Part shown: positions 5,465-24,703 of the stretch, in pieces
Layout: each line of letters opens with the position of its first letter
Position numbering within the stretch: position 1 is the stretch's first letter
Source of the DNA: Desulfovibrio sp.
GTDB taxonomy: Bacteria; Desulfobacterota; Desulfovibrionia; Desulfovibrionales; Desulfovibrionaceae
DNA length: 34,548 bases
Direction of reading: 5' to 3'
Assembly: GCA_017454855.1 (NCBI GenBank)
Contig: JAFTCE010000134.1
Coordinates: 1-34,548, forward strand
Notes under the pieces: generated by a model
Seen by the model: the letters and a program-made list of their open reading frames with translations, nothing else
What the model was told of the DNA's origin: nothing
Databases searched by the model: none
Made by a program: the position numbers and the translations under genes

Positions 5465-5474
5465 GTATTTAGAT

Positions 5475-6155: not shown

Positions 6156-6184
6156 TTGCCATTTGGGGTATTTCGAGTTATATA
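6156..6184 (+). promoter_or_regulatory. Candidate promoter of the MazEF-type pair
   Basis: TTGCCA (6156-6161) and TATATA (6179-6184) are separated by 17 bases and lie 26 bp before the antitoxin ATG. The -10 region sits inside the near-palindrome TTATATAAAAATATAA, a plausible operator for the AbrB-type antitoxin. Confidence 0.5.
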
Positions 6185-6209
6185 AAAATATAATTTTGGG
6201 GAGATCGCC

Positions 6210-6467: not shown

Positions 6468-6799
6468 TTCGGCGCGGCGACATATATCTGGTTGACCTTG
6501 ACCCGACCGAGGGGCACGAACAGCAGGGAACACGTCCGGTTCTGATTGTTTCCCCTGATGCGTTCAACAAGGTGACTCAAGTTCCCGTGGTCTTGCCGAT
6601 TACCAGCGGCGGCAACTTTGCCCGCACCGCAGGTTTCGCCGTATCCCTCAGCGGATGCGGCACACGCACCACAGGCGTGGTGCGCTGTGACCAGCCCCGC
6701 GCCCTTGATTTGCGGGCGCGCTCCGGCAGACGTCTGGAAACTGTGCCTCCCGTCATCATGGAAGAAGTCCTCGCCAAGCTGGAGACCATTTTCAGTTAG
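6464..6799 (+). CDS. mazF: MazF/PemK-type endoribonuclease toxin
   Basis: Product of 111 residues. Diagnostic features are RRGDIYLVDLDPTEGHEQQG at the N-terminus, RPVLIVSPDAFNK, the PITSGG loop and the C-terminal VIMEEVLAKLETIF helix. MazF toxins cut single-stranded mRNA at short motifs. The start is a TTG overlapping the antitoxin stop (TTGA), so the toxin is translationally coupled and probably kept low. It ends 16 bp from the convergent dotL stop. Like the HigBA-type pair, it is opposite in strand to the transfer genes and probably stabilises the element. Confidence 0.9.
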   Translation: MIRRGDIYLVDLDPTEGHEQQGTRPVLIVSPDAFNKVTQVPVVLPITSGGNFARTAGFAVSLSGCGTRTTGVVRCDQPRALDLRARSGRRLETVPPVIMEEVLAKLETIFS

Positions 6800-6815
6800 A
6801 CGAAGCGGTGTCCGG

Positions 6816-8594: not shown

Positions 8595-8604
8595 TTGGGG
8601 GCTC

Positions 8605-9078
8605 CTATGTCTCTGTTGAAGCAATCTGTCTGGTATGTGGCCCTTCCTGCCTTTTCAGAGTCCACGAAATCGCAAGGGCAGACGGAAACGGCGCCGGGTT
8701 TGGAGCATTGCCGAATTTCAACCGTCCGCGAAGAAAACGCACGTCAGCATATGGCTGCACATAGTCCTGCCACCATGCCGTGTCTGTACGGGCAGGCAAG
8801 AGTCCTACAACCAGTGCGCCAAGTTCTGCCGATTTGTATGCTTTGCGTACCCAGCTGTTGATCTCACGACCGTAAGGCGGATTCATAAACACACGATGAA
8901 TGCCCCAATCCTGAGTGAGGCCATCCTCTTGTACAGTGAAATGATATCGACATGTTGCATTGTTATGTGTGCTGCACGGGTCCAGTGTGAAGCAAAAAAG
9001 AGCGTTCAGGCGATCAAAAAAATCTTGCGGTGTTGCCCATTCGTCGGAAGCACTGGAAAACATGACGGTATCGTTCAT
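8605..9078 (-). CDS. Phage-type DNA N6-adenine methyltransferase (Dam-like)
   Basis: Product of 157 residues. It has the pattern of the phage/plasmid adenine methylase family: DEWATPQDFFDRLN near the N-terminus, FTLDPCSTHNNATC, catalytic NPPYG at 66-70, then WVRKAYKSAELGALVVGLLP, and the C-terminal RFLRGRLKFG. It would methylate adenine in short sites on the element. It lies between dotM (5 bp upstream) and dotL (10 bp downstream), inside the coupling-protein pair, so it is expressed with the transfer apparatus. The ribosome-binding site is weak (AT-rich leader), suggesting coupling to dotM translation or low expression. The target site is unknown. Confidence 0.88.
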   Translation of the reverse strand: MNDTVMFSSASDEWATPQDFFDRLNALFCFTLDPCSTHNNATCRYHFTVQEDGLTQDWGIHRVFMNPPYGREINSWVRKAYKSAELGALVVGLLPARTDTAWWQDYVQPYADVRFLRGRLKFGNAPNPAPFPSALAISWTLKRQEGPHTRQIASTET

Positions 9079-9083
9079 AATAA

Positions 9084-10445
9084 TTATTTTATTTGCACTA
9101 CTAGTGACGGATTATTCTCGTGATAATTAACGAAGCCACTGGAAGAACAATCGTCAACGGGTTCAGACGAAGACTGTTTCCCATAAATCGGATTTTTTTC
9201 CTCCGTGTTTTCTGCTATAAATTCTTCACAGTCATTTGGAAAATTTTGATCTTCAACAAGGATACTCTCATTTTTATCCTTCAGCCATCCTTGTGCATCC
9301 AATGCAGATTTCAGACTTACGACAGCAAAATGCACCGTCGCTATAGTATGCTTATATCCGTCATGCATTTCAGCGTCATAGTGCGCCCACGCAGCGAATG
9401 CCTCTACCCAGGCAGTGCGCCCGCCGCATTGGTTGAGGGCATACCAAAGCGGCCGGTCGAGAGGACGGACAAACAGAAATTGCGAGGCAGCGAGGACGCC
9501 TTTCCTTCGGGCCAGCGTCAGCAGGGCCATGAACCACGGAAGCTGAAAACCTTTATGAATGATAAGAAGATGGTCTTCGAGCAGTTTTGCATGATTCTGT
9601 AAGACGGACGCGCATCTGTTCTGAAAATTCTCGGCACTAACAATCGGGCATGAGGGAATACCGTTGTTTTCCACATAGGCCAGCGACATGGCATTCAACA
9701 ACGATATGGCAGTGTTTTTCTCTCCGGCCGCATACGCGAGGAAGGCAGCGGCAAGGGCACGTCGCAGGGGCGGCAGGTCAACAACAGAGGTGAATATCTC
9801 GCCAAGCTGCTCGATGAAGATTTTTTCCGCCTGACTCTCGTAGTAGTCGGCTTTTCCGAAAGCGGGCATATCCGCATACCCAAGGCCATCGCGTAATATT
9901 TCATTGGGCTGAAATGCGTTACCATTCTCTTTCAAAAGAAGCCCATGTTCTGCGGCGAATTGAAGGGGGCTGCGGGCTATGCGCCAGGGCCCGGCATCGA
10001 ACGATTCCTTGGACAGAAGATATTTGCCCTTGCCGACCACCGGACAAAGACAGGGGAATGACTCGGCATTGTTGACGAGCAGGGATTCCATACTGAAGCT
10101 GCGCGTGAGCTTCTTGGTTTTTGCCATGAACAAAGCAGAACCGCCCAGAACGGCCAGCACAACCAGTAATGGCCATCGCGCCCATGAGCCGGCATAGCTC
10201 AGTATGGCGGTCATTTCCTCCCATGTGAGCTGTTCCGGGGCCAGTGTGCCGATTTCTTTCCAGCGTTCAAACGCTTCCTCGAAAAAAATGATGAAGGGCC
10301 GCAGTTCCCATCGGGCGATGGTCAGCAGCATTCCGTTCACCGAACCGGCATGGGTCGCGTAGACGAAGGGCGCGACCAGAATGCCGATGACAATGGCGGC
10401 CATGAGCAGGAGGAAGCGCGTATCCTCGTTTTTTTGTCCGTTCAT
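9084..10445 (-). CDS. dotM: DotM/IcmP (TrbA)-type coupling complex protein
   Basis: Product of 453 residues. Membrane segments lie near residues 11-30 and about 90-107, followed by a large cytoplasmic domain. DotM-type signatures include WRIARSPLQFAAEHGLLL, FLFVRPLDRPLWYALNQCGG and AAWAHYDAE near residue 360. DotM partners the DotL ATPase and, in Legionella, helps recognise substrates through its cytoplasmic domain. The C-terminal 70 residues are polar and low in complexity, unlike the conserved core. It starts 4 bp after the transglycosylase stop and is followed by the methylase gene rather than directly by dotL. Confidence 0.88.
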   Translation of the reverse strand: MNGQKNEDTRFLLLMAAIVIGILVAPFVYATHAGSVNGMLLTIARWELRPFIIFFEEAFERWKEIGTLAPEQLTWEEMTAILSYAGSWARWPLLVVLAVLGGSALFMAKTKKLTRSFSMESLLVNNAESFPCLCPVVGKGKYLLSKESFDAGPWRIARSPLQFAAEHGLLLKENGNAFQPNEILRDGLGYADMPAFGKADYYESQAEKIFIEQLGEIFTSVVDLPPLRRALAAAFLAYAAGEKNTAISLLNAMSLAYVENNGIPSCPIVSAENFQNRCASVLQNHAKLLEDHLLIIHKGFQLPWFMALLTLARRKGVLAASQFLFVRPLDRPLWYALNQCGGRTAWVEAFAAWAHYDAEMHDGYKHTIATVHFAVVSLKSALDAQGWLKDKNESILVEDQNFPNDCEEFIAENTEEKNPIYGKQSSSEPVDDCSSSGFVNYHENNPSLVVQIK

Positions 10446-10448: not shown

Positions 10449-10970
10449 TCACCAGTCCTTGCGTTGTCCGTTGGCGTATTCGATGAGAGATGCGACCCGC
10501 CCCTGACGGAGTTTCACCAGATTTGCCCGCAACCGCCCAACGTAGGCGTTGTGGAATTTTGGGGTGCGGGAATGGTACGCGCCCAATGCCTCCCAAAGTG
10601 AACGCGACCGGCCCATCTCCTTCCGCAGCAGCCATGCCGCTGCCTGGGCATTGACGCAGGCGTCACCCAATACATCCTCCGGGCGCCATCCCGCTTCCAG
10701 CAGTTCCTCTATGTGACAGGTGTTGACCTGAAATGGCCCCATGTCCCATGTGCCGTTGGTGTTGCTCAACGCTAAGCCCGGTTGCCCGCCTTCAGTTGCG
10801 AGGATGCCCAGAAGCGCGGCAAGGGGAACTCCGAACCTGTCTGCCGCTTGCCGGATGCAGGAAAGGGAAAGGTTAGCCTGCGCCGGAACAGCCACCCTGC
10901 CACGGGCATGGGTAGAAAGCGGCACTATGCAGACCAGCAGGGCTGTGGTTATGAGCAACAGCCGTTTCAT
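10449..10970 (-). CDS. Lytic transglycosylase of the transfer system (SLT / VirB1-like)
   Basis: Product of 173 residues with a signal peptide (about 1-22, ending STHA). The SLT-type catalytic glutamate is E60 in LLGILATEGGQPG, followed by NTNGTWDMGPFQVN (71-83). Later AQAAAWLLRKEMGR and ALGAYHSRTP match the fold. The enzyme cleaves peptidoglycan locally so the secretion channel can cross the wall. Its start overlaps the stop of the upstream 140-residue gene (ATGA), indicating coupling, and dotM follows after 3 bp. Confidence 0.88.
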   Translation of the reverse strand: MKRLLLITTALLVCIVPLSTHARGRVAVPAQANLSLSCIRQAADRFGVPLAALLGILATEGGQPGLALSNTNGTWDMGPFQVNTCHIEELLEAGWRPEDVLGDACVNAQAAAWLLRKEMGRSRSLWEALGAYHSRTPKFHNAYVGRLRANLVKLRQGRVASLIEYANGQRKDW

Positions 10971-11389
10971 TTCAGTTTCCTCATCAGGGGATTGGAAATA
11001 TTCGACGCGCTCATGCCGACCTGGAAGGGGTGGTTTGTGCCCAGCACGCCTTCGATCTCGTTTTCCACTTCAGCCGAGGCTGCGTGAATCTTGCTGTCTA
11101 TGTAGGAATTGCAGTCGCGGCAGATGCTTTCGAGGATCTGATCCATTGACGGCACGGAAACGCCCATAGAGAAGGAGTCACCTACCGCATTCAGCGAATC
11201 CAGACAGCTTGTGAGGGCGGAACGATTTTCCTCCGGCGCGGGCATGACCGTATTGAGTGTGCGTTGTGTCTGTTCCGAGCGTGCTTGAGCGGCGGCTTTG
11301 GCGGCGCATTCCATATCCTCGCAGGATGCCTTGGTTTGCACAGGCCATACCGCCAGACAGAGGGCTATAAGCAGAAGGGCCTGCTTCAT
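10967..11389 (-). CDS. Small periplasmic protein of unknown function
   Basis: Product of 140 residues. The start at 11389 is set by an ATGA overlap with the topoisomerase stop. Residues 1-21 are a clear signal peptide ending QTKA. The mature protein begins SCEDMECAAKAAAQARSEQ and has two cysteine pairs (SCEDMEC and ESICRDC) plus a further cysteine. The C-terminal part (SYIDSKIHAASAEVENEIEG) looks helical. I recognise no family. Position between topoisomerase and transglycosylase, with overlaps on both sides, suggests a transfer-channel accessory. It is a plausible substrate of the DsbA-like enzyme encoded at 4325-5071. Confidence 0.8.
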   Translation of the reverse strand: MKQALLLIALCLAVWPVQTKASCEDMECAAKAAAQARSEQTQRTLNTVMPAPEENRSALTSCLDSLNAVGDSFSMGVSVPSMDQILESICRDCNSYIDSKIHAASAEVENEIEGVLGTNHPFQVGMSASNISNPLMRKLK

Positions 11390-13677
11390 TTCTTCATACC
11401 TCCCCAAACAGGTTTGTTGTTGTCGTCGCGGGCGAATACGGCCTTGCCGCTTTTGTGTCCCGATTCGTTGAAACAGGCCCAATAAAATTCCCCCGGTTTT
11501 TTCTTGCTTGCCTGACGCCTGAGCGGTTGCTTGCACTCCGGGCAGAGGTGCAATACGGGTTTGCCGTTGGCGTCATCAAGGAACAGCGGCTTTGCAGAAG
11601 GATGTCCCTGTTCATTGAAGCAGCCCCAGCGCCACGCTCCATCTTTCCCCCTGAACCGTTTGAGGGGCGTCCGGCAGACCGGACAGGGGAAGGCGATGCG
11701 GACCAGAGGCTTCCCGTCCTTGTCGTCCAGAAACAGGCTCTTGCCGGTTTTGTGCTTGTTCTTGTTATGGCAGGCCCAATAGAAGCCGCTTCCTTCCTTG
11801 CTGTGGAATCGGCGCAGCGGTTGCCCGCATTCCGGGCACGGGGTTGTGCCCGGCATGGTCTTGATGGTCAGTGACGCTATGGCTTCCAGATACCGGGGAA
11901 GCGCGTCGGCTACCCCTTGAAGAAAATCGTTCAGCGACACCTTGCCCTCGGCCACATCCTCAAGACGGCTCTCCCAATCTGCCGTAGTCAGCGGATCTTT
12001 CAGGGGGCCGGGCACAAGTTCGATGAGCTGCCGCCCCAGAGGCGTGGACACGATTTTCTTGCCGTCCATGCGCAAAAGTCCGCTTTTAAGCAATTCGTCG
12101 AGGATGGCGGCGCGTGTGGCGTCCGTGCCGATCCCTTTGGTTTTTTTCAGCATCTCCTTGGTGTTGGCGTCGGCCTCCACAAATCGGTGCACATTTTCCA
12201 TTGCCTCCAGCAGCGTTCCGTCTGTGAACCGTGCAGGCGGTGTGGTCTTCCTGGCCTCGGTTTTGCCCTCTGCACAAATGACTGTCTCACCCTTGGCTAT
12301 GGCGGGAACGACGATTTCGCCATCGTCATTCTTGCTGCCTTCAAAGGCCGTCCAGCCGGTCTCAAGGACGCGCTGCCCGGAGGCTTTCCAGAGTGTGTCC
12401 GCCACGGAAATATGGACTTCACGCGCCTCATAGCGCATGGCCGGATGAAACTGGAGGGCGTAGTTCTCGCAGACGAGTTCATAGATCTGTCGCTGGGTTG
12501 GAGGCAGTTCTGCAGCGGGCAGTTCTCCTGTGGGTATGATACCGTGGTGGGCTGTCTGCCTGGCGCTGTTCCAGGCCGGGCTTTTCAGTGACGCGTCGGC
12601 CTTGGCTGCGATGGTGGCCACATGGGCCAGTGAACCGTCCAGCTTGGCCAGGGCTGCGAGGATGTCCCTCCCTTCCGCGTGCTGGTCGTCGGGCAGATAG
12701 CGGCAGTTGGTGCGCGGATAGGATGTGAGGCGGGCGAGGTACAGGGCTTGCGCCGCGTCAAGCACCTGTTTGGCCGAAAGGCCGTATCTTGATGATGCCG
12801 CTTGGGACAGTGCGGAGAGAGAATAGGCCAGAGGCGGCAGTCTTTTTTTCTCCTCAATGGCGGAAAACACCACCTCGCCTTGCGCATTGGTGACAGCGGT
12901 GCAAATCGTATCAGCCCTGGCCTTGTCCACAAGCCGCCCTTCAGAGTCCAGCCCTTCCATATCGGCAGCGGGCTTAAATGTGGCCCATAGGCTGTCATCG
13001 CCGTGTGCGAATAGCGCCTTGAGGACATAGAATGGATGCGGTTGGAAATGCTCAATCTCCAGATCGCGCATGACCACCAGATTGAGCGTGGGCGTTTTGA
13101 CCCTGCCTATGCGGAGGGGGCCGTCCTGTCCGGCCTCACGTCCCTTGAGCGTCATGGCCCGCGTGGCGTTCATGCCCACGAGCCAGTCGGCGCGAGAACG
13201 GGCGCGGGCTGCGTCACGCAGCGGGGCATACTCAGTATTGCGACGCATTCTGTCCAGGGCCCGCCGCACAGCTTGAGGCGTAAGGCCATCGTCCAGCCAG
13301 AGGCGCAATACCGGCCCCTGATAGCCAAAATGCTCCAGCACCTCATCAACGAGAGCCTGTCCTTCACGATCCGGATCACCGCAGTTGACCACCGTGTCGG
13401 CTTTTCGCAGCAGTTCCTTGATGACAGCAAGTTGTCCCGCCGCAGTCGTCTTTGGTTTGTTGCGCCATTGCGCAGGAATGATGGGCAGGGAATCTCTCGT
13501 CCATCTGGCGAGGGCAATGTCATAGTCTTCGGGCATGAACTCCTCAAAGAGATGACCGGCGCACCATGTCACAATGTCAGAGCCGCAACGGATGTGGCCC
13601 CTGGCTGGAGCAGGATTGCCCAGCCCTGCGGCGATAGCCTCACCCTGGGAGTGCTTTTCAGCGACAAAAACGCGCAT
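11386..13677 (-). CDS. topB: DNA topoisomerase III (type IA)
   Basis: Product of 763 residues, started by an ATG with GGAGG upstream. The TOPRIM domain begins MRVFVAEKHSQGEAIAAGLG and carries the metal motif DPDRE at 101-105. The active-site tyrosine is Y320 in ARLTSYPRTNCRYL. After the catalytic core come three copies of a four-cysteine zinc-ribbon module (about residues 620-755), each with a CP-x-C core and a later W-A/G-CxN sequence. Plasmid TopB/TraE-like enzymes decatenate or relax DNA during replication and transfer. Its place between antirestriction genes and the transfer channel suggests it processes transferred DNA. Full length, no defects seen. Confidence 0.95.
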   Translation of the reverse strand: MRVFVAEKHSQGEAIAAGLGNPAPARGHIRCGSDIVTWCAGHLFEEFMPEDYDIALARWTRDSLPIIPAQWRNKPKTTAAGQLAVIKELLRKADTVVNCGDPDREGQALVDEVLEHFGYQGPVLRLWLDDGLTPQAVRRALDRMRRNTEYAPLRDAARARSRADWLVGMNATRAMTLKGREAGQDGPLRIGRVKTPTLNLVVMRDLEIEHFQPHPFYVLKALFAHGDDSLWATFKPAADMEGLDSEGRLVDKARADTICTAVTNAQGEVVFSAIEEKKRLPPLAYSLSALSQAASSRYGLSAKQVLDAAQALYLARLTSYPRTNCRYLPDDQHAEGRDILAALAKLDGSLAHVATIAAKADASLKSPAWNSARQTAHHGIIPTGELPAAELPPTQRQIYELVCENYALQFHPAMRYEAREVHISVADTLWKASGQRVLETGWTAFEGSKNDDGEIVVPAIAKGETVICAEGKTEARKTTPPARFTDGTLLEAMENVHRFVEADANTKEMLKKTKGIGTDATRAAILDELLKSGLLRMDGKKIVSTPLGRQLIELVPGPLKDPLTTADWESRLEDVAEGKVSLNDFLQGVADALPRYLEAIASLTIKTMPGTTPCPECGQPLRRFHSKEGSGFYWACHNKNKHKTGKSLFLDDKDGKPLVRIAFPCPVCRTPLKRFRGKDGAWRWGCFNEQGHPSAKPLFLDDANGKPVLHLCPECKQPLRRQASKKKPGEFYWACFNESGHKSGKAVFARDDNNKPVWGGMKK

Positions 13678-13689: not shown

Positions 13690-15048
13690 TTATCTCATCC
13701 TGATCCGGGGGGAATCCTCTTGTTTGACCGCAACCGGCGAGGAGTTTTTGATCGGCTCGCAGTTCCTCAAGAATGAATTGATGGTGCGGGCTAAGTCCGT
13801 GTAATCGCTGCCGCCATAATGCATCTCCGGGGCAAGAAGTAGCCGGCTGACTCTGCGCAGTTCCTCCCGCATTTCCTTGAGGTCGGCTCTGTCGATGACG
13901 CCCTTAACGCGGCAGCCTTCAGCCTGCATGTAGGGATTCATATTCAATGGAGAGAGCGTGCTCGACAGCAGTTGCTCTGTGACATATTTCGTTTTGTTCA
14001 GTTCCTGCGCGGCATAGAGTTGTTCCCATGTTTTCCTGGGGGGAAACCATTGCGCCTTCGGCTGCTCGCCACTGTAGAACTGATGCACAATAGACAACAT
14101 CTCACCGGCCCTGTGGACAGCCTGAAAGATACATGAAATCATTGTATCTTCAGGCGCAAATCGCCAGTTGTAGGGCTGAAAGCTCTGCGTATGGCATTTT
14201 TCCTTATATCCAAGATAGCGCATGGCAATGATTGTGAATATGTCAGCAGCCATATCTTCAATCATTTGATCTTTGGCATTGTTTGAAAAATATGCCGGGT
14301 GTCGGTTTTCACGATGCCTCGCACCGGTAGCTTTGTAAAATTGACGAAGAATGATTGTCGGATAGACTCGTTCAGGGATATTGGCATCACGGCATGAAGC
14401 CGGAAGAAGGATCGTATCATCCCTCAGATTATATCGTGCAGTTTTGCATGGAGAGTAATAGATATTCATACCGGATGCAGCGACAAACCTGAAGACTATT
14501 TCCAACTGCTCTCTATGTGAGAGCGGTTGCTGTATAAATTCTTTCTTTGGGAAATTCTCAATTTGGCAGGCGTTGTATACCGTGACAGGAATAAAAAGAA
14601 CTGCCCGTCCGACCTTGGGGATAGGTTTGCCGGCCTCATGGCGTTGCAATAACTCTGCGAAGTCGGCTTCAGACATCGCATAGCGCTGCCCGTCATCCCC
14701 GTAATAAAACGGTAACTGCTGGGGGCGCAGGATGACCACGCCCTGTTCCTGAGATGGGACTTTGAGGTCAGTACAAAGGTGACTGCATTGAAAACCGGAG
14801 AGCTCCTCACGACCGATCCAGCGATTGTCGGTGTAGCCGTTTTCAATTCCGGCAAGCATGAGACGCACCATGTTCGGCCCGCAGTATTCTTTGCCGGTGA
14901 AGGGAGAGAACGGCATGGATGTGGGGCCGTCCATTTCTCTGGCATCCCTGGAAATGGAATTGATGGACTTCAGAATTTCAAGACTCATTTCAGTTTTGAA
15001 CCTCTGACTGGCCTTGATGCGGCTGCGAAATTCCTCATCTGTGATCAT
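13690..15048 (-). CDS. ArdC-like antirestriction paralogue 3 (degenerate zincin motif)
   Basis: Product of 452 residues. Two adjacent ATGs (15051, 15048) follow AGGAG; the second has better spacing. An ArdC-type N-terminal ssDNA-binding domain is marked by FSPFTGKEYCGPNMVRLML, GYTDNRW, GVVILRPQ and FIPVTVYNACQIENFP. The expected HExxH zinc site is RQFYK (235-239), so both histidines and the glutamate are replaced. A shared C-terminal motif is present as VHQFYSGEQPKAQWFPP. The protein ends in the basic RIRMR. Known ArdC proteins protect incoming DNA from restriction and have a metalloprotease domain; here the enzymatic part is probably lost. It overlaps nothing and follows paralogue 2 by 31 bp. 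Confidence 0.8.
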   Translation of the reverse strand: MITDEEFRSRIKASQRFKTEMSLEILKSINSISRDAREMDGPTSMPFSPFTGKEYCGPNMVRLMLAGIENGYTDNRWIGREELSGFQCSHLCTDLKVPSQEQGVVILRPQQLPFYYGDDGQRYAMSEADFAELLQRHEAGKPIPKVGRAVLFIPVTVYNACQIENFPKKEFIQQPLSHREQLEIVFRFVAASGMNIYYSPCKTARYNLRDDTILLPASCRDANIPERVYPTIILRQFYKATGARHRENRHPAYFSNNAKDQMIEDMAADIFTIIAMRYLGYKEKCHTQSFQPYNWRFAPEDTMISCIFQAVHRAGEMLSIVHQFYSGEQPKAQWFPPRKTWEQLYAAQELNKTKYVTEQLLSSTLSPLNMNPYMQAEGCRVKGVIDRADLKEMREELRRVSRLLLAPEMHYGGSDYTDLARTINSFLRNCEPIKNSSPVAVKQEDSPRIRMR

Positions 15049-15079
15049 CATTTCTCCTTCGTACCGTAATATAGAGATA

Positions 15080-16489
15080 TTATCGCATCCGAATGCGCTG
15101 CTGTGCGTTATCAGGATTTTTGACTGTCTCTGATGCTTCATTAGATGTGTCCCGTTGCCTGTGAATGCCCATTCCGCTATATATCTCTTTGTTATTATTG
15201 AGATAATACCAAAGGGACAACATTTTTTGCGCGAGACGTTTCTGTCCGTCATCCCATTGCATCGTACTGTTATTATGAAGAATGTGACTTATATCAAACA
15301 ATTCAATCTTCATGTCATCAAAATCTCCATCTAGAATAACCTTTTTTATGTGTTGTGCCTTATCCTGTGTATCCGGCTTTGATGCAAAATAGTGATATGA
15401 ATATTTCAGCAAATCTTTCATAATGGATATCGTTGCTGCATACTCCTGACGTTTATATATTATATCCCATTGATTTTTATTGCTAAACCAAGGAACATTC
15501 GGTTGCTCTCCCATGTTGAACTGGTGCATGACTGTCAGCATTTTCCCAGCAGCCGAGGCCTGCTGAAAAAAAAACTCCAGATCTTCAGGCATTGCCTCTG
15601 TTTTGAACAGGGCAAAATGCCATGCTACATCATGGAATTGTTGTGGGATACCTATGTAGGCGCTTGCCAGGACTGTAAAGAGGTCAGTGTCGGCATCTTT
15701 CATGGAGTAGATGCTGCCGTTCATGTTATATTCAGGAACAAGTCGGCATTCACGACTGCCGGCCATTGAGGCATGATAGAATTCACGCAAAAGTAATGTT
15801 GTAAATGAATAATCTTCATTACGGGCAATCATTTTTGAAGCTGAAATATAAATTGTGTCATCTAATTCAGAATAATGAGAGTCGTTCCTGTTCATGTAAG
15901 TAACTCGTATCCCGGAACATGCGACAAATTGTGAAACAAATTTCTGTATATCAGATAATAATAACAAAGGCTTAATTTCATTTTTATCGGGGAAGCCTTT
16001 AATATTCGCAGCATTATATACGGTGTATGGTGTAAATAGTATCGCATAGTATATTTGAGGGATTGCATCGCCAGCTTTGCGGCGTTGACATAATGTAGTA
16101 TATTCATTCTCGCTCAACACCTTGCGAGTGCCGTCGCGCAGAGACACATAAGGGATTTCTTCCGGTCGGAGCACCTTGACGCCGGGACCAAGATGTTCGG
16201 TGTCAATTTCCAAATTTGGCTGTGATTTTTGCACATGTTCAATTTGTTCGCGGGTGAGCCAGCGGTTGTCATGGTATCCCTTTCTGATGCTCTCCAGCAT
16301 GAGCATGATCATATTGGCGCCGGAAAATTCCTTTCCGCTGATTGGATTGAATGGGATGTAAATGTTACTGATGGAAATTGATTTTTTATTCCGTATTTTT
16401 TCCACAGTGGATAAAATGTGTTTTGCCATTGCAATGCGAGCCTTACGGCTTTGCTGTAGCCTTGTGACTGTCACTTCTGTCTGGCTCAT
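15080..16489 (-). CDS. ArdC-like antirestriction paralogue 2
   Basis: Product of 469 residues. N-terminal ArdC pattern: FNPISGKEFSGANMIMLML, GYHDNRWLTREQI, VKVLRPEEIPY and FTPYTVYNAANIKGFP. The zincin helix reads LLLREFYHASMAG, with REFYH at 235-239; the first histidine of HExxH is arginine. The third-ligand region is TDLFTVLASAYIG. It then has VMHQFNMGEQPNVPWF and ends QQRIRMR. The gene is visibly more AT-rich than its neighbours, with many AAT, ATA and TAT codons, suggesting separate acquisition rather than recent duplication. A role in protecting transferred DNA is inferred from the family and from its place in the transfer operon. Confidence 0.82.
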   Translation of the reverse strand: MSQTEVTVTRLQQSRKARIAMAKHILSTVEKIRNKKSISISNIYIPFNPISGKEFSGANMIMLMLESIRKGYHDNRWLTREQIEHVQKSQPNLEIDTEHLGPGVKVLRPEEIPYVSLRDGTRKVLSENEYTTLCQRRKAGDAIPQIYYAILFTPYTVYNAANIKGFPDKNEIKPLLLLSDIQKFVSQFVACSGIRVTYMNRNDSHYSELDDTIYISASKMIARNEDYSFTTLLLREFYHASMAGSRECRLVPEYNMNGSIYSMKDADTDLFTVLASAYIGIPQQFHDVAWHFALFKTEAMPEDLEFFFQQASAAGKMLTVMHQFNMGEQPNVPWFSNKNQWDIIYKRQEYAATISIMKDLLKYSYHYFASKPDTQDKAQHIKKVILDGDFDDMKIELFDISHILHNNSTMQWDDGQKRLAQKMLSLWYYLNNNKEIYSGMGIHRQRDTSNEASETVKNPDNAQQRIRMR

Positions 16490-16501
16490 GTTCTTTCCCT
16501 G

Positions 16502-16640
16502 CTATTCTGTTTTCTGCATAGTCCTTTGTGTCGCATCTGCCGCTACGGCGGATGTCGTGTCCTCCTGCAAATGCGCATCATGACCATCAACTCCAGCACC
16601 AATCACATCCTTGGCACGGTTCTGTGACGCGGCGCATTGG
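16502..16640 (-). pseudogene. Possible frameshifted C-terminus of ArdC-like paralogue 1
   Basis: The paralogue 1 frame stops at 16603, but the next frame stays open to a TAG at 16504-16502 and reads NRAKDVIGAGVDGHDAHLQE and onward as an ordinary polar tail of about 38 residues. The TAG then sits 12 bases before the next gene's start, a normal operon spacing, whereas the present stop leaves an unusual 113-bp gap. One missing base near 16610-16640 would explain this. It could also be chance. Confidence 0.35.
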
Positions 16641-18207
16641 CGGCGCTGTCCTTTTCAGGTGCGTTTTGACGTGCGGCATTGGCTTGTCGTTCCTCCAACT
16701 CCATGCTCAAGGCAGAAGCCATGCTGCCGCAGAGCGAGGCAATGTCGCGGGCAGATTCGGGAGGTTGCTTGAGAGCCAGATCCAGAAAGTCAGGGTTGCG
16801 GAGTATGGCCCGCACCTGCTTGACGGGATCGTTAAGCGCCTTGTATGCGGCGGCATCCATCTTGGGCTCGGCGTCCTGTTTCTCCCCTTGCCCCATGTCC
16901 ATCTGGATAACCAGTTCAGGTCGTTCAAAGTATTTCCCAATGGCGTCGGCCAGTTTGGCCGCGAGGGGCATGGAGCGTACAGCGTCCGACGAGAGCAGCT
17001 CTTGCGCTTTGGCAAGACTGTCTCTTACGGACTTTTCCTTGCCGTCATTGAGAACGCTTTGGGCTGTCTCGGCGAACTCAGTCGTGGAGGTGTTGCGGGC
17101 GAGGATGCTTGCTGCCCTGTGCAATAAATCCCGTCCCAGAAAAGTCCGTGTCCGTTCCTTTTGCTTCTCCCGCAATGCTGTCCATTCGTCAGAAGGCGGG
17201 AACCATTTCATTTCGGGCGGTTCTCCTTCATGGAACTGGTGCATGGCTGTCAGCACCTTCCCAGCATCGGCGGCGGCATGGAACAGCGCTTTTGCATCTG
17301 TCCCTGCGAAGCGGGTCTGCCAGTCTGTCACCTCTGTGGCCAGACTCTTGGCGTCCTGGCGCATTCCCATGTACTGCGCTGCCATAAGCGCAAACATGTC
17401 TGCCCGCATCTCCTCAATCGCGTGTTCCTTGAGGGTGTGCGCCTTGAACGGAGAGGCAAGACGATTCTCCCGGTTCTTGCCTGCTGTGGCGTGAAAGAAT
17501 TCGCGGAGCAACAGGGCGGAGTAGGCCGGACTGCCCGACGGGCCGAAGCTCAGGGGGCTGGGCAGCACAACCTCGTCCTTCGCATCGTCATACGAAGCCG
17601 TGCCTTCGTGCGAATGCGCCACGGATACGCCTGAAGAAGCCACGAAACTTTGGAGGAACGCCTTTCCTTCGGCCGGATTCATGGCGGGGGCGGGATGTTC
17701 TTTGGGCGGGAAATTCTGCACCTGTTCCGCATTGAACACCGTGTACGGGCAGTACAGGATAGCGGTCTTGATTTCGGGGATTTTTTCCCCTTTGGCTTCT
17801 CGCTTGCGGAGATCCTCAACTTCGTTGGGATTCAGGGCGTGGCGTCTTTTGTCCTTGGACATGACATAGGAGACAGCCTGCGGGCGCAGCAGCTTGATAC
17901 CCTGTTCTCCCTTGCGGACATGGATGTGGAGATCGGGATTATCAGCACGAACCTTGTCAATCTGTTTCATGGTCATCCATCGGTTGTCCGCATAGCCCTT
18001 TTCCATGCTCGCAAGTATGAGGCGTGTCATGTTTGCGCCGCTGTACTCTCTGCCGGTAACGGCGGAGAACGGCATGGCGTGGCCCAGGGGCAGGGCGTCT
18101 GTGCGTTTGGCGAGGGCTGCCATAGAGCGGGCGATACCCTGGGCGAAATCTTGCTGTGCTTCGGTGCTCAATTGGATGCGTGTTTTTTTATCCGGCGTCT
18201 GGCTCAT
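16603..18207 (-). CDS. ArdC-like antirestriction paralogue 1
   Basis: Product of 534 residues. The ATG at 18207 overlaps the upstream stop by one base (TGATG) and has GGAGG upstream. ArdC-type N-terminal domain: FSAVTGREYSGANMTRLIL (47-65), GYADNRWMTMKQI, IHVRKGEQGIKLLRPQ and YCPYTVFNAEQVQNFP. The zincin helix is LLLREFFHATAGKNRENR, with REFFH at 235-239 in place of HExxH. An acidic EEMRADMFALMAAQYMG follows, matching the third-ligand helix. The shared motif AMHQFHEGEPPEMKWFPP is at 321-338, and a longer helical C-terminal region follows. This is the longest and most GC-rich paralogue. It probably binds ssDNA and protects incoming DNA; protease activity is doubtful because of the changed motif. 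Confidence 0.83.
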   Translation of the reverse strand: MSQTPDKKTRIQLSTEAQQDFAQGIARSMAALAKRTDALPLGHAMPFSAVTGREYSGANMTRLILASMEKGYADNRWMTMKQIDKVRADNPDLHIHVRKGEQGIKLLRPQAVSYVMSKDKRRHALNPNEVEDLRKREAKGEKIPEIKTAILYCPYTVFNAEQVQNFPPKEHPAPAMNPAEGKAFLQSFVASSGVSVAHSHEGTASYDDAKDEVVLPSPLSFGPSGSPAYSALLLREFFHATAGKNRENRLASPFKAHTLKEHAIEEMRADMFALMAAQYMGMRQDAKSLATEVTDWQTRFAGTDAKALFHAAADAGKVLTAMHQFHEGEPPEMKWFPPSDEWTALREKQKERTRTFLGRDLLHRAASILARNTSTTEFAETAQSVLNDGKEKSVRDSLAKAQELLSSDAVRSMPLAAKLADAIGKYFERPELVIQMDMGQGEKQDAEPKMDAAAYKALNDPVKQVRAILRNPDFLDLALKQPPESARDIASLCGSMASALSMELEERQANAARQNAPEKDSAANAPRHRTVPRM

Positions 18208-19094: not shown

Positions 19095-20231
19095 CTACAG
19101 TGTGATGTGTTTGCGTTCGGCCATGATGGCCTGATAGTCTGATTTTGAGATAATCTCCTGCTCATAGCATCTGAGAGCGTCCTCTTGAATGCATTGCCCA
19201 TGTTCAAGCAACTGTTCTTCACAAACTCGAATGAGGCGCTCTGGTGAAGTATCAAGCAATGTTTCCCGTATTTCCGGCGTAAAGGGCAGGTATTCCCGCA
19301 ATGCGACACGGCTGTAGCCGTCCTCGCCTCGTACGAGGCGTTGGGAAACAATGAGCCGGAGGCTTGCAAGCAATGTCGCTGTGATTTGAGGACGTTCCGC
19401 ATAGGGGAAGACATTGATGATGCGTGTGAGGGTCTCAGGCACGGAGCGGGTATGCACCGTGGAATAGGCGGCAACGCCGATTTCCGCGCTCTCGATCATG
19501 CCGCGCAGCGTTTCAGGGTCGCGTGATTCGCCGATCAGCACCACATCCGGCGCGGTGCGTGTGCAGTTGCGGACGGCGGAGATGAAAGAGGCCAGATGCT
19601 CCGGCACAGAGCTTTGCGACACCGGCCCGCGCCGCTGGGGAATGGCGTCCAGGTCAAATTCAATGGGGCTTTCATAGGCAGCCACATGCCGACCGCCGAT
19701 TTCCAGAATACGGCGCAGGATAGCCGCCAGCAGGGTGCTTTTCCCGCTGCCCATGACGCCCGTGACCAGCACAAGGCCATTTTCGGGGAAGGCGTGTTTC
19801 AGAATCTCCGGCTCAACATAAAGGGTGTCCAATTCGCGCGGTTCTGAGGGAATCGTGCGGAACACGATTTTGCACCCGGTGGCATAGTCATAGGCCACGG
19901 GGGTGGCATTGCCGCGATAGCGGAAACGTACTCCGCGTCCGTCGCCAATCTGGTGCGCGAAGTCATAGTCCGCAGCACCGGATTGCAGATAGGCGGCAAC
20001 CGAGTTGTTATTGGTGAATGTCTCCAATGCGGCAAACAATTCGTCGGCAGAAATCGTCCGGTTTGTCACAGGTCTCCACAGACCGTGCAGACGCATCCAT
20101 GCCCTGTCGCCGGAGCGAAACAGCATGTCCGACATGCCGAGATGCGTCCCCCACAACAACAGTTCGTTGATGTCTTCATAGTTCCAGCGAAAATCCGGCT
20201 CGTTGGGGTAGAGTTCACTTGTTGCGTCCAT
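19095..20231 (-). CDS. dotB: DotB/TraJ-type secretion ATPase
   Basis: Product of 378 residues from the ATG at 20231, which has GGGAGA seven bases upstream; Legionella DotB is 377 residues. Walker A GVMGSGKST is at 158-166, the aspartate box near EFDLDAIPQRRGP (190s), Walker B-type VVLIGESRD at 230-238, and the His box STVHTRS at 257-263. It is the hexameric PilT/VirB11-family motor docking on the DotO ATPase at the channel base. Its start overlaps the end of dotC by 17 bp, implying coupling. Confidence 0.95.
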   Translation of the reverse strand: MDATSELYPNEPDFRWNYEDINELLLWGTHLGMSDMLFRSGDRAWMRLHGLWRPVTNRTISADELFAALETFTNNNSVAAYLQSGAADYDFAHQIGDGRGVRFRYRGNATPVAYDYATGCKIVFRTIPSEPRELDTLYVEPEILKHAFPENGLVLVTGVMGSGKSTLLAAILRRILEIGGRHVAAYESPIEFDLDAIPQRRGPVSQSSVPEHLASFISAVRNCTRTAPDVVLIGESRDPETLRGMIESAEIGVAAYSTVHTRSVPETLTRIINVFPYAERPQITATLLASLRLIVSQRLVRGEDGYSRVALREYLPFTPEIRETLLDTSPERLIRVCEEQLLEHGQCIQEDALRCYEQEIISKSDYQAIMAERKHITL

Positions 20232-21546
20232 TATGGCGTCTCCCTTTTGTGTGTTTGGTTTCCGATTGAGGAATGACAAAGGCGGACGGAGCGGTGATAC
20301 GGAATACCTGCTGTCCGATGTTCAGGCGGTTGCCGCAGTCCGAGATATTCATGCCCAGATCGGCTTGTGCTGTTTTTACGTCGCTGATGAGATGCTGTGC
20401 GGTCAGCAGGTGGTAGAGCATGATGCCCTTGTAGTCGCGTACCATGCGGGCCACGTTGTCAGCGAAAAGCTGGTCGGCTTCTTCCATGCCCTGCGCCCAT
20501 GCTTCGCGCACGGCGTCCTGCCAGATGCCGCGTTCCTCGCTGTTTTTGGGCAAAACCGAGGGATTTGGTGCTTCCGGCTGGGGGAAGTCGTCTGCCATGA
20601 GATAGGTGCGCCAGTGCGGCACCACGGAGATGTATTTGGCGTTTTGCAGCAGTTCAAAGGTCGAGGTCGCGGCTGTGGCTGTGACGTTTTCCTCAATGCG
20701 CATGGAAGCCCCTGCGCGGGCCAATACCGGCGGCAGAATGAGGGCCTCGCCCTGCGTCATGACGAGCGGCGCGAAGTTGAAGGCACTGTCCATGACGGCG
20801 CTGTGTCGGTACACCTCGTCCAGAAGTTTGCCGTACCTCCAGGCGATGGCGCTTTGCAGCGTCACCATGTGCGCGGCCTCGCGGATAGCCGAGGGGCGAA
20901 GCTGCTTGACGGCATTATCCTTCACGGCAGCCGTTCCCTTCATGTCAAGCAAATCACGGAGAACGTCCGGTTCTGCGGCACGAGATGCGGAACTTGTGTA
21001 CGGCGACGTCAGGGCAATGACCGTGCCTTTGCCCTTGTCCGACAGCGGCGGCATGGGCGCAGGCGGTTCGGAGACAGCGACAGTCGGTGCGGATTGGGCG
21101 GCGACCTGCAACGGTCGGGAGGTTTTGCCCACGCAGGCGGAAAGGAATACTCCCGCGATCAGGAGCAACGGCAAGGCGCTGTGGATACGGGTCACACGGC
21201 GTTCCCGCCACGCCCATATTCCCAGCATGAGGGCAGAGCCGGCAACAGCTCCGAGGAGGAATACGGCCGTCAAGACAGGAAACATAGCGCGACGTTCGTC
21301 TGCCGTGGAAACCGCCGCTTTGAATCCGTCCTCATAGCCGTCGTGATAGGCCGGGCTTTTTCCCGAATCTGACGACAGGTACATGGGCAGAATCGGCGGG
21401 ATGATGATGCTCAGGTTGCGCGCGTGCAGTCCATCCGCCACGGCATTGCCGTTGCCCTGTCCGTCAAGCAGATTGAGGCTCACGGTCAACGCGCCGACGG
21501 AGAGCAGCGAAAAGGCGATACAGAAGGGAAGCAACCATTTTTTCAC
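20215..21546 (-). CDS. dotC: DotC/TraI-type lipoprotein with an N-terminal membrane module
   Basis: Product of 443 residues from the GTG at 21546, which has GGAGG nine bases upstream, just after the dotD stop. Residues 1-117 hold two membrane segments (about 4-23 and 89-112) around a soluble loop. Then a basic RERRVTR leads into LPLLLIAGVFLSAC, a lipobox with cysteine C138. The rest (139-443) matches DotC: LRPSAIREAAHMVTLQSAIA, FNFAPLVMTQGEALILPPV, VPHWRTYLM and MEEADQLFADNVARMVRDY. DotC is an outer-membrane lipoprotein of the core complex. Family proteins are about 270-300 residues and start at the lipoprotein signal. A GTG at 21195 (codon 118) could start a normal-length DotC, but no stop separates the two parts. 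Confidence 0.85.
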   Translation of the reverse strand: MKKWLLPFCIAFSLLSVGALTVSLNLLDGQGNGNAVADGLHARNLSIIIPPILPMYLSSDSGKSPAYHDGYEDGFKAAVSTADERRAMFPVLTAVFLLGAVAGSALMLGIWAWRERRVTRIHSALPLLLIAGVFLSACVGKTSRPLQVAAQSAPTVAVSEPPAPMPPLSDKGKGTVIALTSPYTSSASRAAEPDVLRDLLDMKGTAAVKDNAVKQLRPSAIREAAHMVTLQSAIAWRYGKLLDEVYRHSAVMDSAFNFAPLVMTQGEALILPPVLARAGASMRIEENVTATAATSTFELLQNAKYISVVPHWRTYLMADDFPQPEAPNPSVLPKNSEERGIWQDAVREAWAQGMEEADQLFADNVARMVRDYKGIMLYHLLTAQHLISDVKTAQADLGMNISDCGNRLNIGQQVFRITAPSAFVIPQSETKHTKGRRHNGRNK

Positions 21547-21548
21547 GG

Positions 21549-22019
21549 CTACTTTCCTCCCTCTGCGCTGCGGGCCAGCGTGACAATGCGGTTGACGGCA
21601 TCTACACGCACGACGGCCTGGGGCTGCACTTGCCACGCCACATCCTCAAGCAAAGTATAGGCGGGCTTGTTCAGGCCGTTGACCACCACGGGCAACAGTT
21701 GGGCCGAGGGCTTGCCCATCTCCTGATAACGGTAGCCCACCATCAGGCAGATTTCCTTGAGAATGCCGTCAGCCGGGCCAGTCCAGGACACGGAAAGCGG
21801 ACGTTCCAGTGTCGGGTCGGGCGGCGGCAGAATAGGCTGAACGCCTTGGCCGCGCAGTTTTGCCAGAATGGCAAGATCGCTGTGCGCCTGTTCAGCGGCA
21901 GCACCGAGCGTTACGGCCACAAAATCGGCGGGCGATGTGGCGTGGTTATGCGCCGCCTGCCGAGCCGTGCAGCCCGTGAGCACGGCTGCGGCCAACAGGG
22001 GGACAAGGTATTTCTTCAT
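21549..22019 (-). CDS. dotD: DotD/TraH-type outer-membrane lipoprotein
   Basis: Product of 156 residues. A lipoprotein signal MKKYLVPLLAAAVLTGC places the modified cysteine at 17. The C-terminal half contains LSVSWTGPADGILKEICLMV and VNGLNKPAYTLLEDVAWQV, the secretin-N-like fold of DotD. It forms the outer-membrane core with DotC and DotH. AAGGAGCG lies before the ATG. It is the first gene of the second transfer block, next to the RHH gene on the other strand, so its promoter lies in the 78 bp between 22020 and 22097. Confidence 0.9.
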   Translation of the reverse strand: MKKYLVPLLAAAVLTGCTARQAAHNHATSPADFVAVTLGAAAEQAHSDLAILAKLRGQGVQPILPPPDPTLERPLSVSWTGPADGILKEICLMVGYRYQEMGKPSAQLLPVVVNGLNKPAYTLLEDVAWQVQPQAVVRVDAVNRIVTLARSAEGGK

Positions 22020-22687: not shown

Positions 22688-24703
22688 TCATTCGCCCGCG
22701 TTTTCGTCGGGAGCGGGCGTTGCTTTGCGCTTTTGAAGCGCTGCGGCCGCCCTATTGAAGCCCTGGCGCATGACATTGGCGGCCGGGCTTGCGGAGCTGC
22801 TGAACGTGTGCTTGATGTTGGCCTGGTCTTCCTTCTCGCCCAGGTTGTGGAACTGCTGGCCTATCCAGTTGGTGACGTGTTCCGGCAGATAGTGGATGAG
22901 CGAGAAGAATTTGTTGGCGAGCAGCATGGTGGTGGAACCGAGGATGACCAGCATGGCCATCGTGCCGAGGATGCCCACCATCTTTGTTTGGGAAGCTCCG
23001 CTGACGAACATTTCAAAACCGGTGCCCACCAGTCGGCCGATGACATTGACCAGAATGACGGCACAGAAGAAACCCGCCACCATAAGCGGGGGCCGGATGA
23101 GGATGCCGAGGAACAGCAAATATCCCCGTTTACCATGCTGACCGGCCGCACCGTCGCCTTCCGGCAGGGCGTGTGCGCACACCCACAGGGGCGCGGCAAC
23201 AAGCGATTCCACAATAAGGATGACCCAGCCCGCCAGCGCGGCAATCCAGCGGATGAACGGGATGGCCGGAAGGTAGAAGGCCAGCAGAAGACCGTATGTC
23301 ATCAGGGGCAGGACTGCGCAGAACAGGAAGAAGGAGATGAAGGGCGCGGCTTTTTCCCCGACGACAGGAATGAGCGAGGACGCCCCAAGCACGCCCATCA
23401 GCCCCCAGGCCGCGCCCATGATGTAGTCACCTATGCTGGACAGGGCCATAATGGGGTCATTGGAGGAAAGCATTTCCACGCTTTCGGTCAGGATGTTTGC
23501 TGAAATGGTATTATTGATGAAACTTCGTATTGTACTCCAGACAGCGTCAAAGACGCCTTCCTCGTCAGTCACGGAGGGCGATGAGGTTATGTCCGAGATA
23601 CCGCGCCGGTTGGCGTAGGCCGTGCGGATGTAGTTCTTGAGGCGCAGTTTTACAGCTTCGGCATCCTGTAAGCCATGTGTCCAGCCCCTCCATTCCGAAG
23701 CCGTCCATTCCGGCGCGGCGTAAGTAATGCCGGAATACATGGCGTCGCGGACTTCCTGATTTATCCATGCAATGGACCAGTAGGACGAACCGGCGATAAA
23801 CCAGCCGTATTGATTGGCTATTTCCTGAAAATTCTTGAGCTTGGTGTGCAGTTGCCCGCCCTTGGCGTAGCTTTGCAGTCCCGAAAGGATGTTGGCGTTG
23901 ATACTGTTGGCGGCGTTGTAGAGAGCAAGCGGATCAATGTCCTCAGCCGGTGTCTCCGGGTTTGCCAGTTGCGCGGCCACGGTCATCAACGATGACACGG
24001 CGGGTTCCACGGCATTTCGTTTACCCGTGCAGAGCGCGTCGGAACTGTCCAGGCATTCGATGGTGATGGAACCGGCATTCCCATTGAAGATGAAGCGGTA
24101 CTCCCCCCCCTTGCCGAAGATGTTGTCGCTGTAAGTCCAGCTCCCGCCCGGAGTCACGGCCAGCCCCCGGCGTTCCTGCAGATAGTATTGCAGCGTCAGC
24201 GATTCCAGCGCGCCATTGGCGATGGCGGAATACTGCGTTACATTCTGGTCGGGAGCCTGAACCGTGATTTGCCCGCCATGTTCCACAAAGTAATCCGCGC
24301 CGAGTTCCCAGACATAGTTGCCCAGATTGATGGACCAGCCGATGGCAGCCAGAAGGGCCACCTGGAACAGCGACAACCCTTTGAAAATGGGCGCGAGTCC
24401 GCCCATCGCGCCCACAAAGCGCAGCGGCATCCACAGGGAAGAATACTTTTTCCCGAACGCACTGCCCTCATGGGCTGTGCCTGCCACGGCGACGGTCATA
24501 ACCCAGACGAACAGGGCCGAGATGACGGCCAAAGCCACCAGATTGCACGCGCTGAATATCTGGAGCATGAGTTCCGCAGACTGTGAACCGCCGAGGCCCT
24601 GTCCCCATGTTTCCCAGCCTTGGCCGAGCAAGCTGTCCAAAAACTGCTTGCTGTAGTCAGTCTTGAGCAGGATTTCATTGGTGGCTGGAATATCGCTTGC
24701 CAT
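22688..24703 (-). CDS. dotA: DotA/TraY-type polytopic membrane protein
   Basis: Product of 671 residues. Membrane segments lie near the start (ACNLVALAVISALFVWVMTV), at FQVALLAAIGWSINLGNYVW, and several in the second half (LLAFYLPAIPFIRWIAALAG, GYLLFLGILIRPPLMVAGFF, and the stretch ending MLLANKFFSLIHYLPEHV). A large periplasmic domain separates them. DotA-type signatures include SLWMPLRFVGAMGGLAPIFKG and the IRPPLM loop. DotA is an inner-membrane component required for channel function. Legionella DotA is about 1050 residues, so this is the shorter conjugation-type form (R64 TraY about 745). It overlaps or abuts the IcmV-like gene. Confidence 0.92.
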   Translation of the reverse strand: MASDIPATNEILLKTDYSKQFLDSLLGQGWETWGQGLGGSQSAELMLQIFSACNLVALAVISALFVWVMTVAVAGTAHEGSAFGKKYSSLWMPLRFVGAMGGLAPIFKGLSLFQVALLAAIGWSINLGNYVWELGADYFVEHGGQITVQAPDQNVTQYSAIANGALESLTLQYYLQERRGLAVTPGGSWTYSDNIFGKGGEYRFIFNGNAGSITIECLDSSDALCTGKRNAVEPAVSSLMTVAAQLANPETPAEDIDPLALYNAANSINANILSGLQSYAKGGQLHTKLKNFQEIANQYGWFIAGSSYWSIAWINQEVRDAMYSGITYAAPEWTASEWRGWTHGLQDAEAVKLRLKNYIRTAYANRRGISDITSSPSVTDEEGVFDAVWSTIRSFINNTISANILTESVEMLSSNDPIMALSSIGDYIMGAAWGLMGVLGASSLIPVVGEKAAPFISFFLFCAVLPLMTYGLLLAFYLPAIPFIRWIAALAGWVILIVESLVAAPLWVCAHALPEGDGAAGQHGKRGYLLFLGILIRPPLMVAGFFCAVILVNVIGRLVGTGFEMFVSGASQTKMVGILGTMAMLVILGSTTMLLANKFFSLIHYLPEHVTNWIGQQFHNLGEKEDQANIKHTFSSSASPAANVMRQGFNRAAAALQKRKATPAPDENAGE

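What the first reader, a model, noticed from the sequence alone, without database searches (positions are those of the whole stretch)
13690..18207. Three tandem ArdC-like proteins with an altered zinc motif at the same residue position
Where ArdC-type metallopeptidases have HExxH, these have REFFH, REFYH and RQFYK, all at residues 235-239. The first His is Arg in all three, and paralogue 3 has lost every ligand. All share a C-terminal motif around MHQF, GE-x-P and WF that I do not know from standard ArdC. This looks like a divergent antirestriction subfamily retaining DNA binding while losing or changing protease chemistry, kept as three copies in a transfer operon.
Basis: partly seen in the sequence, partly recalled or inferred. 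Interest (0 to 1): 0.75.

Follow-up and report, generated by a model that had tools for sequence, protein, structure and literature searches.

The report
Tripled pseudo-protease ArdC in conjugation operon
Three neighbouring genes in a bacterial DNA-transfer operon encode relatives of the anti-restriction protein ArdC whose protease site has been lost, and two of them end in the same tiny tail as several DNA-transfer enzymes, suggesting that they travel with the DNA into the next cell.

Summary
In detail: three tandem ArdC-like genes with REFFH, REFYH and RQFYK where ArdC has HExxH, at residues 235-239 once gene 3 is started at 15048. All match ArdC-N; p1 is predicted to fold like R388 ArdC. 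They belong to a family of 26 proteins (21 of 348 genomes of the class) found in one slot of a type IVB conjugation operon; 23 other operons show one copy, this one three. Twelve of 26 keep the metal site; 14, including these three, have Arg for the first His and have also lost ArdC's catalytic Tyr and the N-domain WxxxW loop. Close R-type pairs have dN/dS 0.12-0.21: maintained though probably protease-dead. H- and R-type bodies have been swapped between near-identical operons. Unexpectedly 25 of 26 end R-M-R plus at most one residue, a tail also on 7 of 11 relaxases read, on Mob_Pre proteins and on SNF2-helicase proteins of related genomes, but on 0 of 366 machinery hits and 0 of 239 background genes. 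Best reading: ssDNA-binding pseudo-proteases that accompany the transferred strand, with RMR as translocation signal. Function and translocation are inferred.

The parts
16603..18207 (-). p1, ArdC-like R-type, 534 aa
17491..17505 (-). REFFH, p1 residues 235-239
   Evidence: coordinates worked out by hand from the start codon
17332..17334 (-). p1 Glu292, position of ArdC catalytic Tyr255
   Evidence: Tyr in 12 of 12 H-type, 0 of 14 R-type
15080..16489 (-). p2, ArdC-like R-type, 469 aa, GC 0.41
   Evidence: ArdcN E 1.3e-8; GC
15773..15787 (-). REFYH, p2 residues 235-239
15083..15091 (-). C-terminal RMR of p2 (ends RIRMR)
13690..15048 (-). p3, ArdC-like R-type, 452 aa from the start at 15048, GC 0.50
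   Evidence: ArdcN above cut-off; start choice; AlphaFold2 pLDDT 87.8
14332..14346 (-). RQFYK, p3 residues 235-239
13693..13701 (-). C-terminal RMR of p3 (ends RIRMR)
11386..13677 (-). topoisomerase III, downstream neighbour of the slot
   Evidence: Topoisom_bac E 9e-101; follows the ArdC-like gene in 23 of 23 relatives, with a Dam gene between in L054
18207..18464 (-). small conserved gene u85 (85 aa), upstream neighbour of the slot
   Evidence: upstream in 21 of 23 relatives; not detected in L054, contig edge in L086
18430..18702 (-). small conserved gene u90 (90 aa)
6816..8624 (-). TraD/TraG-type coupling protein
   Evidence: TraG-D_C E 2e-10
8605..9078 (-). Dam-type orphan adenine methylase
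9084..10445 (-). DotM
10449..10970 (-). SLT transglycosylase
19095..20279 (-). DotB-type secretion ATPase
   Evidence: T2SSE; the name DotB is by position and recall
20215..21636 (-). TraI/DotC
   Evidence: T4SS_TraI
21549..22019 (-). DotD lipoprotein
22688..24703 (-). DotA/TraY
   Evidence: TIGR04346 E 1e-136
25966..28950 (-). large ATPase candidate (DotO/TraU position)
   Evidence: weak TraC/VirB4 matches far below cut-off; name by position, inferred
28947..29666 (-). DotI/IcmL
30588..31712 (-). DotG/TrbI-type
31709..32749 (-). DotH/IcmK

Best explanation
p1-p3 are pseudo-metalloprotease forms of ArdC (R-type) in a type IVB conjugation operon of a Desulfovibrionaceae-like bacterium. They probably arose by copying of the single ArdC-like gene that related operons carry next to topoisomerase III. 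SHOWN by sequence: ArdC-type domains; loss of the first metal His together with the catalytic Tyr and the WxxxW loop; purifying selection on the R-type in relatives; exchange of H- and R-type bodies between operons; a C-terminal R-M-R tail (p2, p3 and 23 relatives) shared with several relaxases, Mob_Pre proteins and SNF2-helicase proteins. INFERRED: the ArdC-N domain coats the transferred single strand; the dead zincin domain is a scaffold; the RMR tail docks the protein to the coupling protein, so that it is delivered with the strand and shields it from restriction in the recipient; p2 and p3 have diverged to serve other partners or restriction systems. Proteolysis is not needed for this.
For: ArdC domains and fold. 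R388 ArdC E229A, a metal-ligand mutant, still supports conjugation to P. putida (PMC7213743, passages). First-His position: H in 12, R in 14 of 26, nothing else. Tyr255 position: Tyr in 12 of 12 H-type and 7 of 7 outgroups, 0 of 14 R-type. WxxxW: 12 of 12 H-type, 0 of 14 R-type. Close R-type pairs dN/dS 0.12-0.21, zincin part 0.13-0.28. Same slot in 23 of 23 other operons. L041/L042: dS 1.24 in residues 1-350, 0.21 after residue 386 of the same gene, 0.42-0.63 in three other genes; L050/L086: 1.71, 0.24, 0.29-0.58. Machinery tree rejects an R clade, p-AU 1e-78. Tail: 25 of 26 members, 0 of 366 machinery hits; 0 of 239 background genes; 7 of 11 relaxases above Pfam's cut-off and 6 of 6 weaker matches, the five of these six that were scanned being Mob_Pre; SNF2-helicase proteins.
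Against: R388 ArdC was needed in the recipient, not the donor (PMC7213743), so delivery is not required there. p1 ends PRHRTVPRM and fails the tail pattern. Four of 11 relaxases read lack the tail, one of them (L186, ending RME) very close to tailed ones. Tailed Mob_Pre-like proteins also lie far from the operons (for example G006 at 1.89 Mb against 2.65 Mb), so the tail need not belong to this transfer system. No PF03432 relaxase was found in the window's genome (draft assembly). dS of p2 and p3 is saturated or nearly so, so selection on them is untested; p1 against L047 gives 0.30. No DNA binding, antirestriction or transfer was measured. E229A was tested in one recipient species in the passages I saw.
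Confidence: 0.5

Rival explanations
1. The R-type proteins still hold a metal or have a new chemistry: p1 keeps E236, H239 and E266, and Arg could take part in a different hydrolytic site.
For: 11 of 14 R-type members keep both Glu at the E228/E229 positions although the H205 position is H, K, E, S or R.
Against: No metal-binding residue that is new to the R-type is found in all its members; the nearest, an acidic residue at p1 position 69 in 12 of 14, lies in the N-domain. The catalytic Tyr is lost in 14 of 14 and the E202 position is G, L or Q in 7 of 14.
Confidence: 0.08
2. p2 and p3 are decaying copies without function, seen by chance in one genome.
For: Branches of about 2.1-2.3 changes per column against about 0.6 for p1; lower GC (0.41, 0.50); seen in 1 of 24 operons.
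Against: Full-length open frames, a conserved MHQF/GExP/WF block, a confident p3 model with the same order of elements as p1 over most of its length and RIRMR ends in both.
Confidence: 0.2
3. R-type proteins act as regulators or decoys of active H-type ArdC-like proteases, of their own or of competing elements, rather than as strand-coating proteins.
For: H- and R-type members live together in 2 of 11 genomes with an R-type (G048: L043 and L048; G241: L084 and L085); regulation is a common role of pseudoproteases (general knowledge).
Against: In 9 of 11 genomes with an R-type, the window's included, no H-type member of the family was found (only the top candidates per genome are scored there).
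Confidence: 0.15
4. The RMR tail binds something other than this system's coupling protein, and the ArdC-like proteins are simply made in the recipient, as R388 ArdC can be.
For: R388 ArdC acts when expressed in recipients (PMC7213743); tailed Mob_Pre proteins also lie far from these operons; no direct evidence of translocation.
Against: The tail is shared by primase-type relaxases near the operons, Mob_Pre and SNF2-helicase proteins and absent from 366 machinery hits; in the related N. vulgaris plasmid ArdC, helicase-related protein and relaxase all lack it together.
Confidence: 0.25

Closest known systems
ArdC of R388 (PDB 6i89, 6sna)
   Different: First metal His is Arg and the catalytic Tyr is lost; extra C-terminal helical region; RMR tail on p2 and p3; three tandem copies in a type IVB operon. 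R388 ArdC is 297 aa with intact HExxH.
Polyvalent proteins with ArdC-N and MPTase domains (PMC5512222)
   Same: Same domain pair; proposed there to travel with DNA as full-length proteins (passages, section 8)
   Different: That section describes HEXXXH and other active-site variants; the parts I read report no MPTase type without the metal site. The R-type lacks it.
Positively charged C-terminal signals of T4SS effectors (VirB/D4 Arg motif, cited in PMC10025392, passages)
   Same: Short positively charged C-terminal end on T4SS substrates
   Different: Here a near-invariant R-M-R at the very end, on ArdC-like, relaxase, Mob_Pre and SNF2-helicase proteins of genomes with type IVB conjugative elements; for Dot/Icm effectors the same review describes an E-block.
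ArdC-like protein of Nitratidesulfovibrio vulgaris plasmid pDsulf-L2-2 (L092)
   Same: ArdC-like gene shortly upstream of topoisomerase III on a plasmid with Dot/Icm-type genes
   Different: HEFYH and Tyr intact, no RMR tail; its relaxase and helicase-related protein also lack the tail.

Membership tests
ArdC family | ArdC-N domain (PF08401) | tested here: met
   All three above cut-off
ArdC family | C-terminal zincin-like domain (PF18818) | tested here: met
   p1 above cut-off and fold match over both domains; p3 below cut-off only, p2 no profile hit, both aligned to p1 over the domain
ArdC family | antirestriction activity | not testable with these tools
   needs mating experiments
active gluzincin metalloprotease | HExxH plus third-ligand Glu | tested here: not met
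   p1 REHEE, p2 REHKD, p3 RQKED in place of HEHEE
active gluzincin metalloprotease | Tyr at the ArdC Y255 position | tested here: not met
   0 of 14 R-type
active gluzincin metalloprotease | a metal site, if need be rebuilt in space by other residues | tested here: inconclusive
type IVB conjugation element | Dot/Icm core genes with coupling protein | tested here: met
type IVB conjugation element | relaxase | tested here: inconclusive
   none in the window genome by PF03432 (174 contigs); relaxase matches 16-26 kb from the ArdC-like gene in single-contig relatives G006, G073, G078, G255
T4SS substrate with the RMR tail | RMR at the C-terminus of p2 and p3 | tested here: met
T4SS substrate with the RMR tail | RMR at the C-terminus of p1 | tested here: not met
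   ends PRHRTVPRM
T4SS substrate with the RMR tail | tail needed for transfer | not testable with these tools
   needs a fusion-transfer assay

The most novel reading that the evidence does not exclude
A three-residue C-terminal R-M-R tag is the substrate signal of a family of type IVB conjugation systems, worn by relaxases of unrelated kinds (relaxase-primase and Mob_Pre), by SNF2-helicase antirestriction-like proteins and by ArdC-like proteins, so that the element ships a protective escort with its DNA. The ArdC escort exists in two interchangeable bodies, protease-competent and protease-dead, swapped by recombination in one slot, and one element has expanded the dead form to three diverged copies.
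Probability: 0.45. Interest if true: 0.75.

Novelty: new variant of a known kind. Interest (0 to 1): 0.6.

Why it matters
What ArdC's protease domain does is open: a ligand mutant still works in conjugation (PMC7213743). Natural protease-dead alleles, kept under selection and swapped against apparently active ones, give matched pairs for asking what the protease is for, and point to the WxxxW loop of the DNA-binding domain as its possible partner. The RMR tail, if confirmed, would be a simple searchable signal for proteins that a type IVB conjugation system sends along with DNA.

Tried and rejected
Start of p3 at 15252: rejected, it overlaps p2 and puts the motif at 303-307. Repeated independent loss of the first His: the machinery tree alone would need 5 changes (L081 and L086 have only 34% and 38% of its columns), but the ArdC trees without catalytic columns need one, and the dS step inside the gene shows exchange. 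Root: with outgroups the best tree nests the H-type inside the R-type; an R clade has p-AU 0.089, not rejected, so whether Arg arose once is unsettled. N-terminal extension of L047 as a fused second ArdC copy: no support. Shared helical insert of p1, p2, p3 (and L047): only weak sequence support in a tiny database (E 5e-5 to 0.06 among p1-p3); the p1 and p3 models have helices in the same order at 338-430. IMG/VR searches with single proteins found no relative; plasmid searches with p2 and p3 found only matches under 60% identity and under 80% coverage. NCBIfam and PADLOC had no match for p1-p3. The comparison of the p3 model with the PDB did not run. An Arg235-Glu266 salt bridge in place of the metal stays a guess. 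Dropped rows: G049, G130, G161 and two further G239 proteins (E 1e-31 to 1e-43) were not counted as family; L090 and L091 (G239) served as outgroups; L038 and L039 were left out of the trees (L039 too).

Tail counts: of 19 PF03432 matches, 13 are above the cut-off: 11 C-termini read, 7 with the strict tail (L174, L179, L183, L184, L185, L187, L216), 4 without (L173, L178, L180, L186); one is a 187-aa fragment and one could not be read because the script picked another frame. All 6 below the cut-off have the tail; 5 of these 6 were scanned and are Mob_Pre. With the looser pattern 2 of 239 background genes match. Gene calls took longest ORFs and miss some real genes; the Fisher value (16 of 439 against 0 of 239, p 0.001) counts homologous elements more than once and is nominal.

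Literature: searches; none of their listings showed, by title or abstract start, a report of this family or of an RMR tail. I read passages of PMC7213743 (and part 1 of its section 8), PMC5512222 (and its section 8), PMC10025392 and PMC11288057, nothing else.
Full report
CHECK. The window (34,548 bases, GC 0.55) carries a minus-strand type IVB transfer operon (DotH, DotG, DotI, DotA, DotD, DotC, DotB-type ATPase, DotM, coupling protein). Between the DotB-type gene and topoisomerase III lie p1 (16603-18207), p2 (15080-16489) and p3 (13690-15048). Their motifs REFFH, REFYH and RQFYK are at residues 235-239, given the p3 start at 15048; identity to p1 is 31% and 29%.

FAMILY. Profiles of the three and their relatives find 23 further close members in 20 genomes; with the window, 26 proteins in 21 of 348 genomes of the class (only top candidates per genome are scored). 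Weaker matches in G049, G130, G161 and two more in G239 were not counted. An even draw of 395 genomes of the phylum gives matches at E 1e-60 only within the genus. Each of the 23 loci shows one copy; topoisomerase III follows in 23 of 23 (a Dam gene between in L054; the topoisomerase frame is in two pieces in L053 and L083), u85 precedes in 21 of 23. Only the window has three.

TWO TYPES. At ArdC's ligand positions 12 of 26 are H-E-H-E-E and 14 of 26 have Arg first; no third residue occurs. The R-type lacks Y255 (0 of 14; H-type 12 of 12; outgroups 7 of 7) and the WxxxW loop of the N-domain (0 of 14 against 12 of 12; both Trp in 5 of 7 outgroups). Elsewhere HExxH is the rule: 80 of 80 viral ArdC-like ORFs recovered; one other degenerate case, HQFCR, is L038. 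No metal-binding residue new to the R-type is shared by all its members. Close R-type pairs have dN/dS 0.12-0.21, H-type pairs 0.08-0.20, p1 against L047 0.30.

SWAPPING. With catalytic columns left out, the ArdC tree separates H and R by one branch (87/94; body only 90/93; neither reaches the tool's starred level). The tree of six machinery proteins mixes them (5 changes, at least 4 forced; R clade rejected, p-AU 1e-78). L041 (R) and L042 (H) are 84-96% identical in DNA from 225 to 1,500 bases upstream, 61-78% over the first ~1,050 bases of the gene, 86-94% over its last part and mostly 81-92% in the topoisomerase gene with dips to 69%. dS is 1.24 in residues 1-350, 0.21 after residue 386 and 0.42-0.63 in topoisomerase, DotM and coupling protein; for L050/L086 1.71, 0.24 and 0.29-0.58. 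The body tree rejects L041+L042 (p 2e-4) and L050+L086 (p 4e-51). Rooting is unsettled: with outgroups, H nests in R, and an R clade has p 0.089.

THREE COPIES. p1-p3 form one clade (96/91; 100/94 with outgroups), p2 and p3 being sisters on long branches. GC is 0.58, 0.41 and 0.50. The p1 and p3 models share the order of C-terminal helices at about 338-430. Local copying is the simplest reading, but long-branch attraction and capture from another element are not excluded.

TAIL. 25 of 26 members end R-M-R plus at most one residue, even the two short members without the rest of the C-terminal region; p1 is the exception (PRHRTVPRM). In both models the end has very low confidence, as a disordered tail would. 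Of 366 machinery hits none has the strict tail. Of 11 relaxases above Pfam's cut-off whose end was read, 7 have it, among them those 16-26 kb from the ArdC-like gene in G006, G073 and G255 (HTRMR, RVRMR, HTRMR); 4 do not, one ending RME. In G078 the relaxase lies in two frames, the second ending RMRMR. Six weaker relaxase matches all have it; the five scanned are Mob_Pre proteins, and some lie far from the operons. Large SNF2-helicase proteins carry it too: two scanned have an Eco57I-type methylase domain (L194, L214), one shows helicase domains only (L231). In 14 background stretches 0 of 239 genes have the strict tail and 2 a looser one; 4 of 98 and 12 of 341 genes in element neighbourhoods have the strict one. 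In the N. vulgaris plasmid the ArdC-like protein, the helicase-related protein and the relaxase all lack it. Positively charged C-termini are known T4SS signals (PMC10025392, PMC11288057, passages), and ArdC-N proteins have been proposed to travel with DNA (PMC5512222). I therefore read RMR as the probable translocation signal. After checking, the odds of the best and the boldest reading were lowered by 0.05 each, because most of the extra tailed relaxase matches proved to be Mob_Pre proteins, some of them remote from the operons.

MECHANISM. Most likely relaxase, SNF2-helicase and ArdC-like proteins are recruited by their tails and enter the recipient with the strand, where the ArdC-N domain covers it; in the R-type the zincin domain is a scaffold. 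Each functional step is inferred.

Noticed in passing
window 8605-9078 (-): A Dam-type orphan adenine methylase inside the transfer operon, also in or next to the operon in L053, L054, L085 and L086: a second possible antirestriction gene.
   Followed up: partly
window 5108-6826 (-): A 572-aa protein of partly low GC with no Pfam match, with relatives beside the coupling-protein gene in some related operons.
   Followed up: no
L194:2045-8707, L214:52-6012, L231:14584-19824: Very large SNF2-helicase proteins, two with an Eco57I-type methylase domain, ending in RMR within these elements.
   Followed up: partly
L188-L192, L213:3692-4936: Mob_Pre proteins ending GMRMR or GTRMR in several genomes, as if mobilisable elements had adopted the same tail.
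   Followed up: partly
L217 (G078:C1 near 2307000-2308600): Relaxase in two open frames (187 aa and 363 aa); the second ends RMRMR.
   Followed up: no
L053 and L083: The topoisomerase III frame after the ArdC-like gene is in two pieces in these two operons.
   Followed up: no
L047:9286-11979: R-type member of 897 aa with an N-terminal extension of about 330 residues without relatives in the loci held.
   Followed up: partly
L038:9191-10402: Another ArdC-like protein with a degenerate site (HQFCR, Lys at the third-ligand position) in a Desulfovibrio MAG, outside this family.
   Followed up: no
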